Source: Devosia indica (GTDB taxonomy: Bacteria; Pseudomonadota; Alphaproteobacteria; Rhizobiales; Devosiaceae). From it: a DNA stretch of 64,000 nucleotides. The notes under the pieces are model-generated. The model did no database searches. It saw nothing but the letters and a program-made list of their open reading frames with translations, and had not been told where the DNA came from. Shown piece after piece: positions 6,376 through 17,130 of this stretch. The position numbers were made by a program, and so were the translations under genes. Numbering within the stretch: the stretch's first letter is position 1; every line of letters begins with the position of its first letter. Location: contig NZ_PYVZ01000002.1 of assembly GCF_003056405.1 (NCBI RefSeq), forward strand, positions 1-64,000, read 5' to 3'.

Positions 6376-6437
6376 AGGGGAAGATTTGCGCACCTACAGC
6401 AACGTAGATAGGCGCTGCAATAGCTGGGAGAATTCTA
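6376..6437 (-). pseudogene. coding remnant sharing a PAIxxPIYxAxGA motif with 18,286-18,372
   Basis: On the minus strand the bases next to the IS5 insertion read PAIAAPIYVAVGAQIFP. The second copy near 18,300 on the plus strand reads PAITVPIYLAAGAPLLF. Over 41 aligned bases about 31 match, and most differences fall at third codon positions, so both look like pieces of related former genes. I do not recognise the family. The IS5 element cuts directly into this stretch. Confidence 0.4.
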
Positions 6438-7216
6438 GGTCCTGTTGACATAAGTCGGCATCCATAGCTTTGCGGCGGCGCGTGCCAGGAAGCCAAGGAA
6501 TGAGATGGCGGTCTTGTCGTATCGAGTTGCGATGCGCCGGAACTGCTTGAGCTTGTTGAACATGCGCTCGACCCGGTTACGGTCCTTGTAGGCACGGTAG
6601 TCGCAGGCGATAGCCTCTTTGCGGTTGGCCTTGGGCGGGATGACCGGCAGAATCCCCTTGAGCAGCAGGCTGGCGCGGACATCGTCGCTGTCGTAGCCCT
6701 TGTCGGCCAGCATCAGCCTGGGCTTGGCGACAGGCAAGGCGATCAGGTCATCGATGGCCTTATAGTCGGAGGCTTCGCCGCCAGTGAGGACGAAGCCAAG
6801 AGGGCGTCCCTGACCGTCTGCGCGGGCGTGGATTTTGCTCGTAAAGCCGCCGCGGCTTCGACCAAAACCCTCCTTATGAGTCCCCCTTTTGCGCCCGCTG
6901 CCTGAGAGTGGCCGCGCACCGTGGTGCTGTCGATCATGTGCTGCCAGTCGTCGGTGAGCCCAAGCTCGACCAGCGTTTCCAGCAAGGCGTCCCAGACCCC
7001 TTGCTCTGCCCAGCGGCGGAACCGGACATAGACCGAATTCCACTTGCCATAGCGCTCATGCATGTCGCGCCAGGGGCAGCCGACCCGCAACACATAGAGC
7101 ATTCCGTTCAGAAAGCGCCGGTTGTCTAGGGCTGGCCGAGACCATCGACCACGCTCGGCCGGCAACAATGCCCCTACCAGCGCCCACTCATCATCAGTCA
7201 GATCGCCCCGAGCCAA
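6435..7216 (-). CDS. IS5-family transposase (two frames, -1 frameshift)
   Basis: Two overlapping frames make one DDE transposase. Frame 1 (7216 down to about 6882, from a TTG) carries DLTDDEWALVGALLP, the DUF4096-like N-terminal domain. Frame 2 carries the catalytic part: GRSRGGFTSKIHAR, LADKGYDSDDVR and a C-terminal YKDRNRVERMFNKLK. The frames join at an AAAAGGGGG run (6882-6890 on the plus strand): a -1 slip there turns GAKGG directly into THKEGFGRSRGG, the continuous sequence of intact relatives. The stop codon TAG is completed by flanking DNA (6435-6437), outside the element. The gene looks functional, but its upstream region is separated from its left terminus by the inserted IS110-type element, so mobility is doubtful. 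Confidence 0.85.
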
Positions 7217-7318
7217 AACTGCCTCCTCTGAAAGGAAGCCTGATGATGTGGACGCCCCCGCAGAGACCGGCGCTATGTTGTCGGTCAGTCACCCGAAGCA
7301 GGAAGAGGAGCGTTTACG

Positions 7319-8341
7319 ATGACGATCACAACGATTGGGCTGGATCTAGCGAAGAGCGTCTTTCAAGCACATTGCGTCGACGAGACCGGTGCTGCGGTTC
7401 TGATGAAGAAGCTACACAGGAAACAGATGCTGCCTTTCTTCTCGAAGTTGCCGCCATGCCTGATCGGTGTGGAGGCCTGCGGAACAGCGCACTATTGGGC
7501 ACGAACGCTCGCCGCAATGGGGCACGAAGTTCGCCTGATTCCGCCTTCCTACGTGAAAGCGTACGTAAAGCGTGGAAAGAGCGACGCGCTGGATGCCGAG
7601 GCCATCTGCGAAGCCGTACAGCGGCCAACAATGCGGTTCGTGCCAGTCAAGACGATCGAGCAGCAGGGCATTCTTATGACCCATCGCGCCCGATCCCTTC
7701 TCGTTCGGCAACGGACCATGCTCGCCAACGCCCTGCGTGCCCATCTTGCAGAGCTGGGCCACGTTGCCAACCCCGGCATTGGCAACCTCGCCAAGCTGGC
7801 CGAGCAGGTGATAGCTGACAGGAATGCCTTGCCATCCTACGCCCGTACGGCGTTTGAGATATTGATCCGCCAGATCATGGCCGTCGGCGCAGAGATTGCG
7901 GAACTGGATCAGCAGCTTGCAACTTGGCATACCGAGAGTGAGGCCAGTCGTCGACTTGCCGCGATCCCCGGCCTGGGCGTGATCACGGCAACAGCAATAG
8001 CTGCAACCGTTACGGATGCCGATCAGTTCTCTTCAGGCAGGCAGTTCGCCGCATGGCTCGGTTTGACACCGCAACAACACTCAACCGGGGGAAAAACCAG
8101 ACTTGGCGGGATCTCCAAGCAAGGCGACCGATATCTGCGCCGATTGCTCGTCGTCGGGGCCACCGCAGTCATGCGCCACATCAAGGATAAGCCAACGCCG
8201 ATGGCGGACTGGATCAGGAAGCTCTCCGAGAAAAAGCCCTTCCGGCTCGTCTCGGTGGCCCTTGCTAACAAACTCGCCCGGATCGCTTGGGTCGTGCTGA
8301 CCCGCAAGGAGGCATATCACCCTTACGCCCATTTGACCTGA
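7319..8341 (+). CDS. IS110/IS1111-type DEDD transposase (recombinase)
   Basis: A 340-residue protein. The N-terminal RuvC-like DEDD domain shows GLDLAKSVFQ (first Asp about residue 9), GVEACGTAHYW (Glu about residue 52) and KRGKSDALDAEAI (Asp pair about residues 85-88). The C-terminal Tnp_20 domain shows IPGLGVITATAIAA and FAAWLGLTPQQHSTGGKTRLG, which carries the conserved Ser/Thr region thought to act as nucleophile. Length is typical and no stop or frameshift interrupts it. GAGGAG precedes the ATG. Related IS110 recombinases are guided by an element-encoded RNA that pairs with target and donor; see the right non-coding end. The copy appears intact and possibly active. Confidence 0.92.
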   Translation: MTITTIGLDLAKSVFQAHCVDETGAAVLMKKLHRKQMLPFFSKLPPCLIGVEACGTAHYWARTLAAMGHEVRLIPPSYVKAYVKRGKSDALDAEAICEAVQRPTMRFVPVKTIEQQGILMTHRARSLLVRQRTMLANALRAHLAELGHVANPGIGNLAKLAEQVIADRNALPSYARTAFEILIRQIMAVGAEIAELDQQLATWHTESEASRRLAAIPGLGVITATAIAATVTDADQFSSGRQFAAWLGLTPQQHSTGGKTRLGGISKQGDRYLRRLLVVGATAVMRHIKDKPTPMADWIRKLSEKKPFRLVSVALANKLARIAWVVLTRKEAYHPYAHLT

Positions 8342-8416
8342 TCACCCCAGGTCACCCGAAATGGTAATGGCAGTCGATGATGAGTAACGATCGAGCCAAT
8401 GGTGAGACCAACCCGT

Positions 8417-8525
8417 CTGATTCAATGCGCTTCCACGCGCGGCAGCCTGTTTAGGGACCTCACCGGCGGATTTCCATCAGGGCCAGCGGCAGTACGTATG
8501 CCGCATAAACAGGCCGGACATATGA
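8417..8525 (+). ncRNA. candidate guide (bridge/seek) RNA in the right end of the IS1111-type element
   Basis: The 240-nt tail downstream of the recombinase has no plausible gene but clear structure. At 8417-8434 it reads CTGATTCA, four bases, GCTTCC. This matches the complement of the pre-insertion target (CTGATTCA, TCAG, GCTTCC) at 14 of 18 positions, with the mismatches only at the centre. Next, GCCTGTTTA (8445-8453) pairs perfectly with TAAACAGGC (8506-8514) and encloses the hairpin GCGGCA/TGCCGC (8486-8504). ACATATGA (8518-8525) then repeats the sequence across the element's right border (8578-8585). Known IS1111 elements encode their guide RNA at this end. Exact RNA ends and strand are inferred. 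Confidence 0.6.
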
Positions 8526-8769
8526 CAGCAACCGATCAAACCCGCCCCGACAAAATGCCCTTGCCAAGGGGGCGTCCACATATGAATCAGTCAGACAGCG
8601 ATTTGGGAATCCCTTTTGTCAACACAGCCTAACTGCGCCTGAGTTCGCATGGACGCCATATGTAATCGAGGTGACGATGCGGTCGAGCATAGTGTGATGC
8701 CTGACCATCCATCTTTTATGAAAGCAACCGGCACTCTATCGCGTGCGGTAATGATCCATGCGTCGGCAG

Positions 8770-15030: not shown

Positions 15031-15575
15031 AGCCTGCCCGCCGGCGCCAGCTTGTCGATGTGGTGAGGGAGACCTGGAAGGTGTCGGTGCGTCGGGCCTG
15101 CGAAGCCCTGCGGATTGATCGCTCCCTCTACACCTACAAGTCCAAGCGCGGCGAGCAGGCCGACCTTAAGCTCAGGATCAAAGAGATCTGCGAGACCCGG
15201 GTCCGATACGGGTATCGGCGTGTGCATGTCCTCTTGCTTCGGGAAGGGTGGCCAATCAACATGAAGCGAACCCGTAGGCTTTACAACGAGTTGGGACTAC
15301 AGCTGCGCAACAAAACACCAAAGCGACGGGTGAAGGCCAAGCTCAGGGAGGACCGAACGGATGCCACCCATTCCAACCAGATCTGGGCGATGGACTTCGT
15401 GCATGACCAGTTGGCCACCGGCCGGAAGCTGCGCATCCTGACCATCGTCGATACCCATTCCCGCTACGCGCCGGCCACCGATCCGCGGTTCAGCTACCGT
15501 GGTGAAGATGTTGTGCAAACGCTTGAGCGGGTCTGCCAGGAGGTGGGTTATCCGAAGATGATCCGGGTGGACAAC
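15018..15575 (+). pseudogene. IS3-family transposase OrfB, truncated
   Basis: From the slip site onward the -1 frame reads KKALKPARRRQLVDVVRETW, continues through YGYRRVHVLL and KTPKRRVKAKLRED, and enters the rve integrase core (IWAMDFVHDQLATGRKLRILTIVDT, then SYRGEDVVQTL). The first catalytic Asp (MDF) and the second (RVDN) are present. The sequence departs from the family right after RVDN, so the catalytic Glu and about 90 C-terminal residues are lost. It is inactive. Confidence 0.85.
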
Positions 15576-15609
15576 GTCCTATGTCAGGAGGCGAAACTGA
15601 AGATCGGGC

Positions 15610-17130
15610 AGCAGGTCTCGGTACGGGAGTTTGCACCCGCTGTCTGGTCATCGTCAATCCAGGCGGCTTCCACCGGCATGGAGGAGCTCTCTGCCATAAC
15701 AAACAAAGGGTCCAGCGGACGCGCCGTGGCCCTGACCGTCCTTAAAACGAGATGCAGATCCAGATGGAAGACCCAAGCATTATCTACAGGGTCGCGCTTT
15801 GCGCCCTCACGGCAGCACGGAGAGGGGTTCTCCCACCTGGCACCGGCCCCTCAAAGTAGGGACGGTAATCGGAACCGCTTTTGACGACGGCGTGGACGAC
15901 ACGGGCCATCTTGGCAGTAATAGCGGTGAGCGCCTTGCGTCGCAGATCCGGGTTGTCCCGATCGCGAGCGATGTAGCGCTCGAACTTTTCGCGGAAGCCA
16001 TTCTCCCGCTGGCGGATGGCCACCTGGGCAGCGAGCCACAGCGTGCGGCGCAGCCGGGCATTGCCATACTTGGAAAGCATGGTGCGGCCGCGGAAGGTGC
16101 CTGACTGGTGCGTGGACAGGTCCAGGCCGCAGAACTTGAGGAACTGGCGGTGATGGCCGAAGCGACGGATGTCGCCAGCCTCGGCGATGATGGACAATGC
16201 ATTGATTGGTCCAATTCCGGGGATCTTGCGCAGGTGCTGATAATCTGCGCTCTGCGCCAACATGGTGTCTGCCATCTTCTCAACCACATCGCGTTGTCGG
16301 ATCAGGCTGCGTACTTCGGCCAGCACCATGCGGAACATGGTGATCGCCGACGAATCGAGCGGGATGGGCAGCGCGATTGAGGTGCTGGCCGCCTGGTAGA
16401 TATCGGCCAGGAGCGTCGCCTTCGATACCTTGCGACCCACCACTTTCCAAGAAGCCTCGATGAACGCCGCCTGGTCCATCGCGGTAATGCTGGCAGGGGT
16501 GGGGAACAACTCTAGGAAAGCAAAGAACCAGTCACTGCGGCTGTTTTGGCGGAAGCGCTCGATCTCAGGAAAATAGAGTGGGAGGTAGTGAGTCTGGACC
16601 CGGAGCAAGATCTCGGTCTTGGAACGCGAGATCGCTTCATGGGTCTTGGATAGTTCCTGCACGTCATTGATCCCGGCCGCCAGCGGGTCGTGATAGTGCT
16701 GGGTGGCGCCGATCCGCAGCATGTGCAGGATCACCTGAGCATCCTTGGGGTCATTCTTGTCCCAGCTGTTGTGCAAGGCCTCCCGCGTGCGGGCGGCCGC
16801 CATTGATGATACCAACCGTACATCGAACCCCGCCTGGATCAGCCGCCAGGCGATGGGCCGATGATAGTTTCCAGTAGCCTCAAAACCGCAGATCACCGTC
16901 TTGCCAGTCTCGGCCAGCAAGCCAATCAGACGATCATGGTCATGGCGGGTGTTGAGAATCGAGAGTTTGCGGCGGCGTTGCCGGTCAGGAAACTCAATGA
17001 GAACTTCGTTGCGTGCCTTGGCGATATCGATCGCTACCAGCACGGCGCCCAATGGCGTAATCTGCTTGGTGGTCATGGTCGGTCAGTCTCCAAAACGAGG
17101 CGTTGAACACCTCCACTTTAGAGACCTGCT
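15610..17130 (-). mobile_element. second IS110-family element
   Basis: AGCAGGTCTC (15610-15619) and its complement GAGACCTGCT (17121-17130) form a 10-bp inverted repeat around the transposase gene, as in IS1111-type elements with short, often subterminal repeats. In the element's own orientation the left non-coding part is about 54 nt and the right part about 174 nt. It sits between a truncated IS3 element and the stump of an ABC ATPase gene. True ends may lie a few bases outside the repeats. Confidence 0.6.
15784..17076 (-). CDS. IS110-family DEDD transposase
   Basis: A 430-residue IS110-type recombinase, longer than the 340-residue copy at 7319 and only distantly related to it. The DEDD domain shows LVAIDIAKARNEVLIEF, VICGFEATGNYHRP (Glu) and SWDKNDPKDAQVILHML (Asp pair). 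The C-terminal Tnp_20 domain shows IPGIGPINALSIIAEAGDI and FCGLDLSTHQSGTFRGRTML. No internal stop. The 174-nt stretch after its stop could hold a guide RNA, but I could not find a convincing target match there. Confidence 0.9.
   Translation of the reverse strand: MTTKQITPLGAVLVAIDIAKARNEVLIEFPDRQRRRKLSILNTRHDHDRLIGLLAETGKTVICGFEATGNYHRPIAWRLIQAGFDVRLVSSMAAARTREALHNSWDKNDPKDAQVILHMLRIGATQHYHDPLAAGINDVQELSKTHEAISRSKTEILLRVQTHYLPLYFPEIERFRQNSRSDWFFAFLELFPTPASITAMDQAAFIEASWKVVGRKVSKATLLADIYQAASTSIALPIPLDSSAITMFRMVLAEVRSLIRQRDVVEKMADTMLAQSADYQHLRKIPGIGPINALSIIAEAGDIRRFGHHRQFLKFCGLDLSTHQSGTFRGRTMLSKYGNARLRRTLWLAAQVAIRQRENGFREKFERYIARDRDNPDLRRKALTAITAKMARVVHAVVKSGSDYRPYFEGPVPGGRTPLRAAVRAQSATL

What the first reader, a model, noticed from the sequence alone, without database searches (positions are those of the whole stretch)
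8342..8581. IS1111-type element carries a structured right end whose segment matches its own insertion target
Seen: at 8417-8434 the tail reads CTGATTCA, ATGC, GCTTCC. The complement of the reconstructed empty site reads CTGATTCA, TCAG, GCTTCC, i.e. 14 of 18 with mismatches only over the insertion point. A perfect 9-bp stem (8445-8453 with 8506-8514) encloses another hairpin (8486-8504). ACATATGA at 8518-8525 repeats the element's right border (8578-8585). Known: IS110-family recombinases use an element-encoded bridge/seek RNA with target- and donor-pairing segments, placed in the right end in IS1111 types. Inference: this is such a guide RNA, caught with its target. In my reading both target arms pair with the same DNA strand, which may differ from the IS621 loop geometry and deserves attention.
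Basis: partly seen in the sequence, partly recalled or inferred. Interest (0 to 1): 0.82.

Follow-up and report, generated by a model that had tools for sequence, protein, structure and literature searches.

The report
IS1111 element with its guide RNA
This is an ordinary jumping gene of a recently described kind that carries a small RNA guide choosing where it lands; the guide and the landing site can both be read here, but the guide reads the two halves of the site on opposite DNA strands, as already known, not on one strand as first thought.

Summary
The finding is real but partly misread. Window 7241-8582 is an intact IS1111-type insertion sequence (340-aa DEDD transposase, 12-bp subterminal repeats, 7-bp and 3-bp extensions). 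It lies in the leader of an IS5-family transposase, without target duplication. Its right non-coding region encodes a seekRNA/bridge RNA. I located the guides by covariation over 67 elements and re-tested them on 16 held-out guides. The left-target guide is 8443-8449, matching the left flank plus core in the opposite sense. ACATATGA (8518-8525) copies the element's own right end, a likely donor guide: exact in 99 of 104 aligned rows, which include repeated copies. The guide order is that published for IS1111 seekRNAs. New member of a known kind; the added value is covariation support for a donor loop and a shared core base in IS1111 RNAs.

The parts
7241..8582 (+). whole IS1111-type element
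   Evidence: sTIR search and empty-site comparison
7241..7247 (+). 7-bp left extension TGATGAT (left end; begins with core TG)
7248..7259 (+). left subterminal inverted repeat GTGGACGCCCCC
7319..8341 (+). DEDD transposase/recombinase, 340 aa; D9, E52, D89, D92 present in 88 of 88 aligned transposases; position 256 is T (S in 61, T in 26, R in 1 of 88)
   Evidence: Pfam PF01548/PF02371, NCBIfam NF033542 'IS110 family RNA-guided transposase'
8342..8567 (+). 3' non-coding region that encodes the RNA
8375..8380 (+). 5' strand of an internal helix with the probable right donor guide (partner 8474-8479)
   Evidence: consensus fold of 67 elements
8401..8464 (+). target domain: P1 8401-8407/8458-8464 (7th pair A.C in the window), P2 8412-8414/8454-8456
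   Evidence: compensatory changes, 56 sequences
8417..8424 (+). right target guide CTGATTCA, complementary to right flank +1..+8 (8 of 8)
8443..8449 (+). left target guide CAGCCTG = left flank -5..-1 plus core TG (6 of 7)
8473..8479 (+). probable right donor guide TCCATCA, complementary to the left end TGATGAT (5 of 7); also pairs internally with 8375-8380
8481..8515 (+). donor-domain stem GGCC 8481-8484/8512-8515 enclosing hairpin 8486-8491/8499-8504
8518..8525 (+). left donor guide ACATATGA = right end ACATA plus core TG and A
   Evidence: 99 of 104 aligned rows carry an exact copy of the last 5 bases of the right end
8568..8579 (+). right subterminal inverted repeat GGGGGCGTCCAC
8580..8582 (+). 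3-bp right extension ATA
7236..7240 (+). left half of the target (AAGCC), in the leader of the IS5-family transposase
8583..8590 (+). right half of the target (TGAATCAG), in the same leader

Best explanation
An IS1111-type insertion sequence whose downstream non-coding region gives a guide RNA of the seekRNA/bridge RNA kind. [quoted passage not shown] then a donor domain with a probable right-donor guide (8473-8479, for the element's left end), a GGCC-stemmed hairpin, and the left-donor guide (8518-8525, for the element's right end plus core). The transposase-RNA complex would pair the RE-LE circle junction with the site AAGCC|TGAATCAG in an IS5 leader and recombine at the NG core without duplicating the target. 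Shown here by sequence: element, empty site, guides, helices, co-changes of guide and site. Inferred: transcription, processing, circle intermediate, strand exchange, present-day activity.
For: Element ends, intact DEDD transposase and empty site. Covariation scan over 67 elements (effective number 45): 8443-8447 identical to target -5..-1 (z 7.4-8.6), and seven of the eight columns 8417-8424 complementary to the right flank (z 3.7-5.5; 8423 faces the nearly constant +2 and gives no signal, and 8417 peaks at +9, not +8). Permutation of targets among 43, 37 or 30 representatives: right guide z 13.5-17.6, left guide z 10.6-12.3, 0 of 5000 permutations as high; opposite-sense controls z 0.5-1.6. 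Held-out test, 16 distinct guides: z 9.6 and 6.5, 0 of 5000; opposite-sense controls z 1.9 and 0.6. 25-pair structure: 91.6% of cells paired, 22 of 25 pairs with double changes, slid versions 26-41%; RNAalifold finds the same five helices, differing by a pair or so at their ends. Left donor guide copies the right end exactly in 99 of 104 rows; the core base agrees between both left guides in 102 of 104, over T, A and C (rows include repeated copies of one element). Control outside the group: both IS4321 copies of plasmid R751 match the model (E 1.7e-12, 1.2e-11) and the same guide slots read their flanks, right guide 9 of 9 (by eye).
Against: No transcript, binding or transposition data. The left guide mismatches at -5 (C against A). 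The first base of the right flank agrees with the core base of the left target guide in only 77 of 104 rows, and the first base of the left end with that of the donor guide in 94 of 104. The scan also lists two artefact hits at z 5.8 that rest on about 2% of the weight. The right donor guide is confounded: its constant part also pairs inside the RNA. The 82-nt seekRNA that suffices for ISEc11 (PMC11187229) is too short to span the counterpart of 8401-8525, so the donor domain may not be needed in that form.
Confidence: 0.93

Rival explanations
1. One reading: one continuous guide 8417-8434 pairs with both half-sites on the same DNA strand.
For: 14 of 18 match at this one locus, reached by 6 of 5000 shuffles. 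In the held-out set the left-arm test gives z 2.5, with 52 of 5000 permutations as high.
Against: Over 43, 37 or 30 representatives the left arm gives z -1.9 to -2.0. GCTTC of the arm is kept in 10 of 12 rows of close relatives while their left flanks differ. The arm lies in a hairpin whose stem shows compensatory changes. The true empty site is 3 bases shorter, so the register is wrong.
Confidence: 0.02
2. The target match of the right guide is a DNA-level feature (the element carries a copy of its target captured on excision), not an RNA guide.
For: TGAATCA follows the right end in 12 of 12 rows of close relatives, so in that set alone guide and flank do not vary.
Against: In wider relatives guide and flank change together at fixed slots of a conserved RNA structure, and the two halves are read in opposite senses around a hairpin. 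RNA guidance is shown by experiment for other IS1111 elements (PMC11187229, parts 1-5 of 9 read).
Confidence: 0.03
3. The RNA has only a target loop; the likeness of 8518-8525 to the right end and of 8473-8479 to the left end reflects internal structure or end maintenance, not donor pairing.
For: 8475-8479 pairs with 8375-8379 inside the RNA in 54-64 of 65 sequences. A short seekRNA suffices for ISEc11 (PMC11187229). Ends and NCR are inherited together, so permutation z-scores for donor guides are inflated by kinship.
Against: 8518-8522 equals the right end in 99 of 104 rows across seven end variants, and is unpaired in the consensus. Position 8473 pairs with the left end in 41 of 65 but with the next internal base in 2 of 65. 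The core base agrees between both left guides in 102 of 104 rows. Durrant et al. predict donor-binding nucleotides in IS1111 RNAs (PMC11208160, passages read).
Confidence: 0.2

Closest known systems
IS1111-family seekRNAs (ISEc11, ISKpn4, ISPa11, ISPst6; Siddiquee et al. 2024, PMC11187229; main-text parts 1-5 of 9 read)
   Same: downstream NCR, sTIR, 7-bp and 3-bp extensions, no target duplication, top-strand complement 5' of bottom-strand match, natural redirection by changed guides
   Different: different target (IS5-family leader); donor guides, which the parts read do not describe, are supported here by covariation
IS621 bridge RNA (IS110 group; Durrant et al. 2024, PMC11208160; passages read)
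   Same: two loops, each with a left guide that pairs with the bottom strand and a right guide that pairs with the top strand; dinucleotide core included in the guides
   Different: RNA lies downstream, not upstream; guide order is right-then-left in both loops; core is NG (mostly TG) instead of CT; long sTIR
IS4321/IS5075 (IS1111 type; Partridge and Hall 2003, title seen in a reference list only)
   Same: also inserts into a conserved end region of another mobile element; the model R1 finds its RNA and the same guide slots read its flanks
   Different: 44-47 bits against 112 for the window; target is a Tn21-type inverted repeat (its sequence recalled), not an IS5 leader

Membership tests
IS1111 family | subterminal inverted repeats of 11-13 bp with 7-bp left and 3-bp right extensions | tested here: met
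   12 bp perfect, TGATGAT and ATA
IS1111 family | DEDD transposase of 330-350 aa with the GL-P----S(t)G motif | tested here: met
   340 aa; D9/E52/D89/D92; GLTPQQHSTG at 248-257
IS1111 family | long NCR downstream of the transposase gene | tested here: met
   226 nt at 8342-8567
IS1111 family | insertion without target duplication | tested here: met
   8 of 8 fetched empty IS5 leaders (of 58 records hit) align without gap at the junction; L101 is the empty form of the L085 site
IS1111 seekRNA | top-strand complement located 5' of the bottom-strand match | tested here: met
   8417-8424 then 8443-8449
IS1111 seekRNA | RNA co-purifies with the transposase; essential for movement | not testable with these tools
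   needs experiment
IS621-type bridge RNA (IS110 group) | upstream NCR, left guide before right guide, CT core | tested here: not met
   downstream, right before left, NG core
bridge RNA in the wide sense | second loop that reads the element's own ends | tested here: inconclusive
   right-end copy in 99 of 104 rows; left-end guide confounded by an internal helix
Rfam families | match at gathering score | tested here: not met
   0 matches in the whole window

The most novel reading that the evidence does not exclude
IS1111 seekRNAs are complete two-loop bridge RNAs in which both loops are permuted relative to IS621 (right guide, hairpin, left guide). One core base is kept in step in the left guides of both loops, and an internal RNA copy of the element's left end holds the right donor guide closed until the donor DNA displaces it. 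The long published RNA (145-170 nt) would carry both loops and the short one (70-100 nt) only the target loop.
Probability: 0.5. Interest if true: 0.55.

Novelty: new member of a known kind. Interest (0 to 1): 0.4.

Why it matters
RNA-guided IS1111 elements are candidates for programmable DNA insertion, and in the papers seen here the guide bases were worked out for only a few. The covariation gives base-by-base guide slots that also read IS4321. It supports a donor loop in this family, and it raises a testable conflict with the report that a short RNA suffices for movement.

Tried and rejected
Left arm 8429-8434 as a guide: no covariation over 43, 37 or 30 representatives, and GCTTC kept in 10 of 12 close rows whose left flanks differ. 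A held-out z of 2.5, 52 of 5000, is a result the other way; I take it for chance or shared composition, which I did not test further.

The 9-bp stem 8445-8453/8506-8514: 47.9% of cells paired, covariation below its shuffles. It is in the lowest-energy fold of the window RNA, so energy alone would mislead.

GATGATG near 8376-8382 as a same-strand donor guide: my first idea (note). Searches show that it is the internal partner of 8474-8479.

An outer helix 8362-8370/8558-8566 appears in the consensus, but its pairs hold in 41 to 65 of 64-67 sequences; left open.

The first chance test used a site shifted by one base (13 of 18); corrected.

Sampling and rows dropped. One search worked on 98 records (window and 97 loci). 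One search normalised 78 ends (window and its copy L001 included); four loci gave none, and loci with weak, masked or missing repeats, or with only part of the transposase, had been left out before. One search used 67 after I left out by hand L001, L024, L041, L049 and L073 (end-finding had clearly failed in the last four), and rows with identical NCR and flank or with flanks cut by a contig end. Alignment A1 has 56 of the 67 (each under 93% NCR identity to those kept before it). The held-out test left out seven distant rows with uncertain ends (L127-L132, L135) and one without ends (L125) before counting, and then kept one row per distinct guide with both flanks long enough. One search counts 104 rows, the 67 and 37 added ones, with repeated copies of one element among the latter.

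Full report
What is there. Window 7241-8582 is an IS1111-type insertion sequence. The transposase ORF is 7319-8341. It matches Pfam DEDD_Tnp_IS110 and Transposase_20 and NCBIfam 'IS110 family RNA-guided transposase'; the two solved chains found by sequence are ISCro4 and IS621 transposases. The subterminal repeats are 12 bp and perfect, with 7-bp and 3-bp outer extensions. D9, E52, D89 and D92 are present in 88 of 88 aligned transposases.

The insertion site. The element interrupts the leader of an IS5-family transposase on the minus strand. A search with the joined flanks found 58 plasmid records, 38 of them covering at least 80% of the query. I fetched 8; all 8 align through the junction without a gap and read TGAATCA there. 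L101 is the uninterrupted form of the site that the relative L085 occupies. So the site is ...GGAAGCC|TGAATCAG..., with no duplication.

Locating the guides. From 98 records (window and 97 loci) I had 78 normalised element ends and used 67 elements (effective number 45) for a scan of NCR columns against flank positions. The strongest signals were columns 8443-8447, identical to target -5..-1 (z 7.4-8.6). Seven of the eight columns 8417-8424 are complementary to the right flank (z 3.7-5.5); 8423, which faces the nearly constant +2, gives no signal, and 8417 peaks at +9 instead of +8, probably an alignment shift. Two hits at z 5.8 rest on about 2% of the weight and are artefacts. With one sequence per cluster (43, 37 or 30) and 5000 permutations of the targets, the right guide scores z 17.6, 15.7 and 13.5 and the left guide 12.3, 11.1 and 10.6, with no permutation as high.

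In the window the right guide is CTGATTCA, 8 of 8, and the left guide CAGCCTG, 6 of 7. In the close relatives L085-L094 the left guide reads CA[G/A]CT before the core, with T at target -1; the window has C in both places. L005 has G in both places at -2. These look like natural one-base redirections.

Why the one-strand reading fails. Its stem shows compensatory changes at all five positions, though the outermost pair is weak. GCTTC is kept in 10 of 12 rows (GCTTT in L091, GCCTC in L005), while the left flanks of the relatives read AGTCT, CATCT, CAGCT, CACCT, CGACT or CATGT. The left guide found by covariation is read in the opposite sense, so the two arms meet opposite strands. This is the published IS1111 arrangement (PMC11187229, main-text parts 1-5 of 9 read).

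The RNA fold. Over 56 sequences the five-helix structure is paired in 91.6% of cells; 22 of 25 pairs have changes on both sides, and slid controls pair in 26-41%. RNAalifold finds the same helices without being told, with small differences at their ends and one extra lone pair. Folding energy is not better than that of shuffles, so the case rests on covariation.

The donor side. 8518-8522 equals the last five bases of the right end in 99 of 104 rows, over seven variants of that end. The next base (the core) agrees with the core base of the left target guide in 102 of 104, over T, A and C. The rows include repeated copies, so these are not independent counts. The flanking DNA itself follows less closely: the first base of the right flank agrees with the guide's core base in 77 of 104 rows, and the first base of the left end with the donor guide's in 94 of 104. 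8473-8479 is complementary to the left end: permutation z 5.5-6.0, and 4.9-5.6 for its variable part; the right-end copy gives z 7.6-9.7. But the constant part of 8473-8479 also pairs with 8375-8380 inside the RNA, and element ends are inherited with the NCR, so this last guide is probable, not shown. Durrant et al. [quoted passage not shown] the parts of Siddiquee et al. that I read do not describe them. Apart from these papers, no title or start of abstract listed by my searches names an IS1111 donor loop; only open-licence PMC papers are held and the listed papers were not otherwise opened, except for passages of PMC11208158.

Independent control. The covariance model finds both IS4321 copies in plasmid R751 at E 1.7e-12 and 1.2e-11. 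Read by eye: right guide AAAACGGAA against flank TTCCGTTTT (9 of 9), left guide TATT before the core against TATT (with a mismatch at -5), donor guide ATAGA against right end ATAGA, and CTCATCA against the complement CTCATTA of the left end (6 of 7). A second IS1111 element of the own genome seems split over contigs C21 and C34. If the two parts are one element, its guides match its flanks at 7 of 8 and 4 of 5 (by eye). In genome G410 an 82% relative has six copies; all six right flanks begin TGAATCA, two of them ending there with the contig.

Verdict. It is a new member of a known kind. The most novel reading still open is that IS1111 RNAs are two-loop bridge RNAs with both loops permuted.

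Noticed in passing
window 15784-17076 (-): A 430-aa second IS110-family transposase ORF, of the longer IS110 type, overlaps the end of an ORF at 15060-15884 (+) that looks like an IS3-family orfB (label by eye). It may be another RNA-guided element inserted in an IS3 gene.
   Followed up: no
window 6435-7216 (-): The host IS5-family transposase is in two overlapping frames, as in IS5-family members that use a frameshift (recalled). The IS1111 element separates it from its terminal repeat and probably its promoter (inferred).
   Followed up: partly
L002 and L003 (own genome, contigs C21 and C34): A second IS1111 element whose two parts lie on different contigs, possibly interrupted by another insertion. 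Its RNA matches the model at 114 bits and its guides fit its flanks.
   Followed up: partly
G000:C45:100700-100789 (L110): Weak match to the RNA model (E 0.005); not examined.
   Followed up: no
window 8362-8370 with 8558-8566: Possible outer helix closing the whole RNA next to a TTGCCA present in the 12 rows; pairs hold in 41-65 of 64-67 sequences.
   Followed up: partly
transposase position 256: The S(t)G motif position is Ser in 61 and Thr in 26 of 88 transposases, Thr in the window.
   Followed up: no
L059 and L013: Two RNA-model matches on opposite strands in each locus, so a second element lies close by.
   Followed up: no
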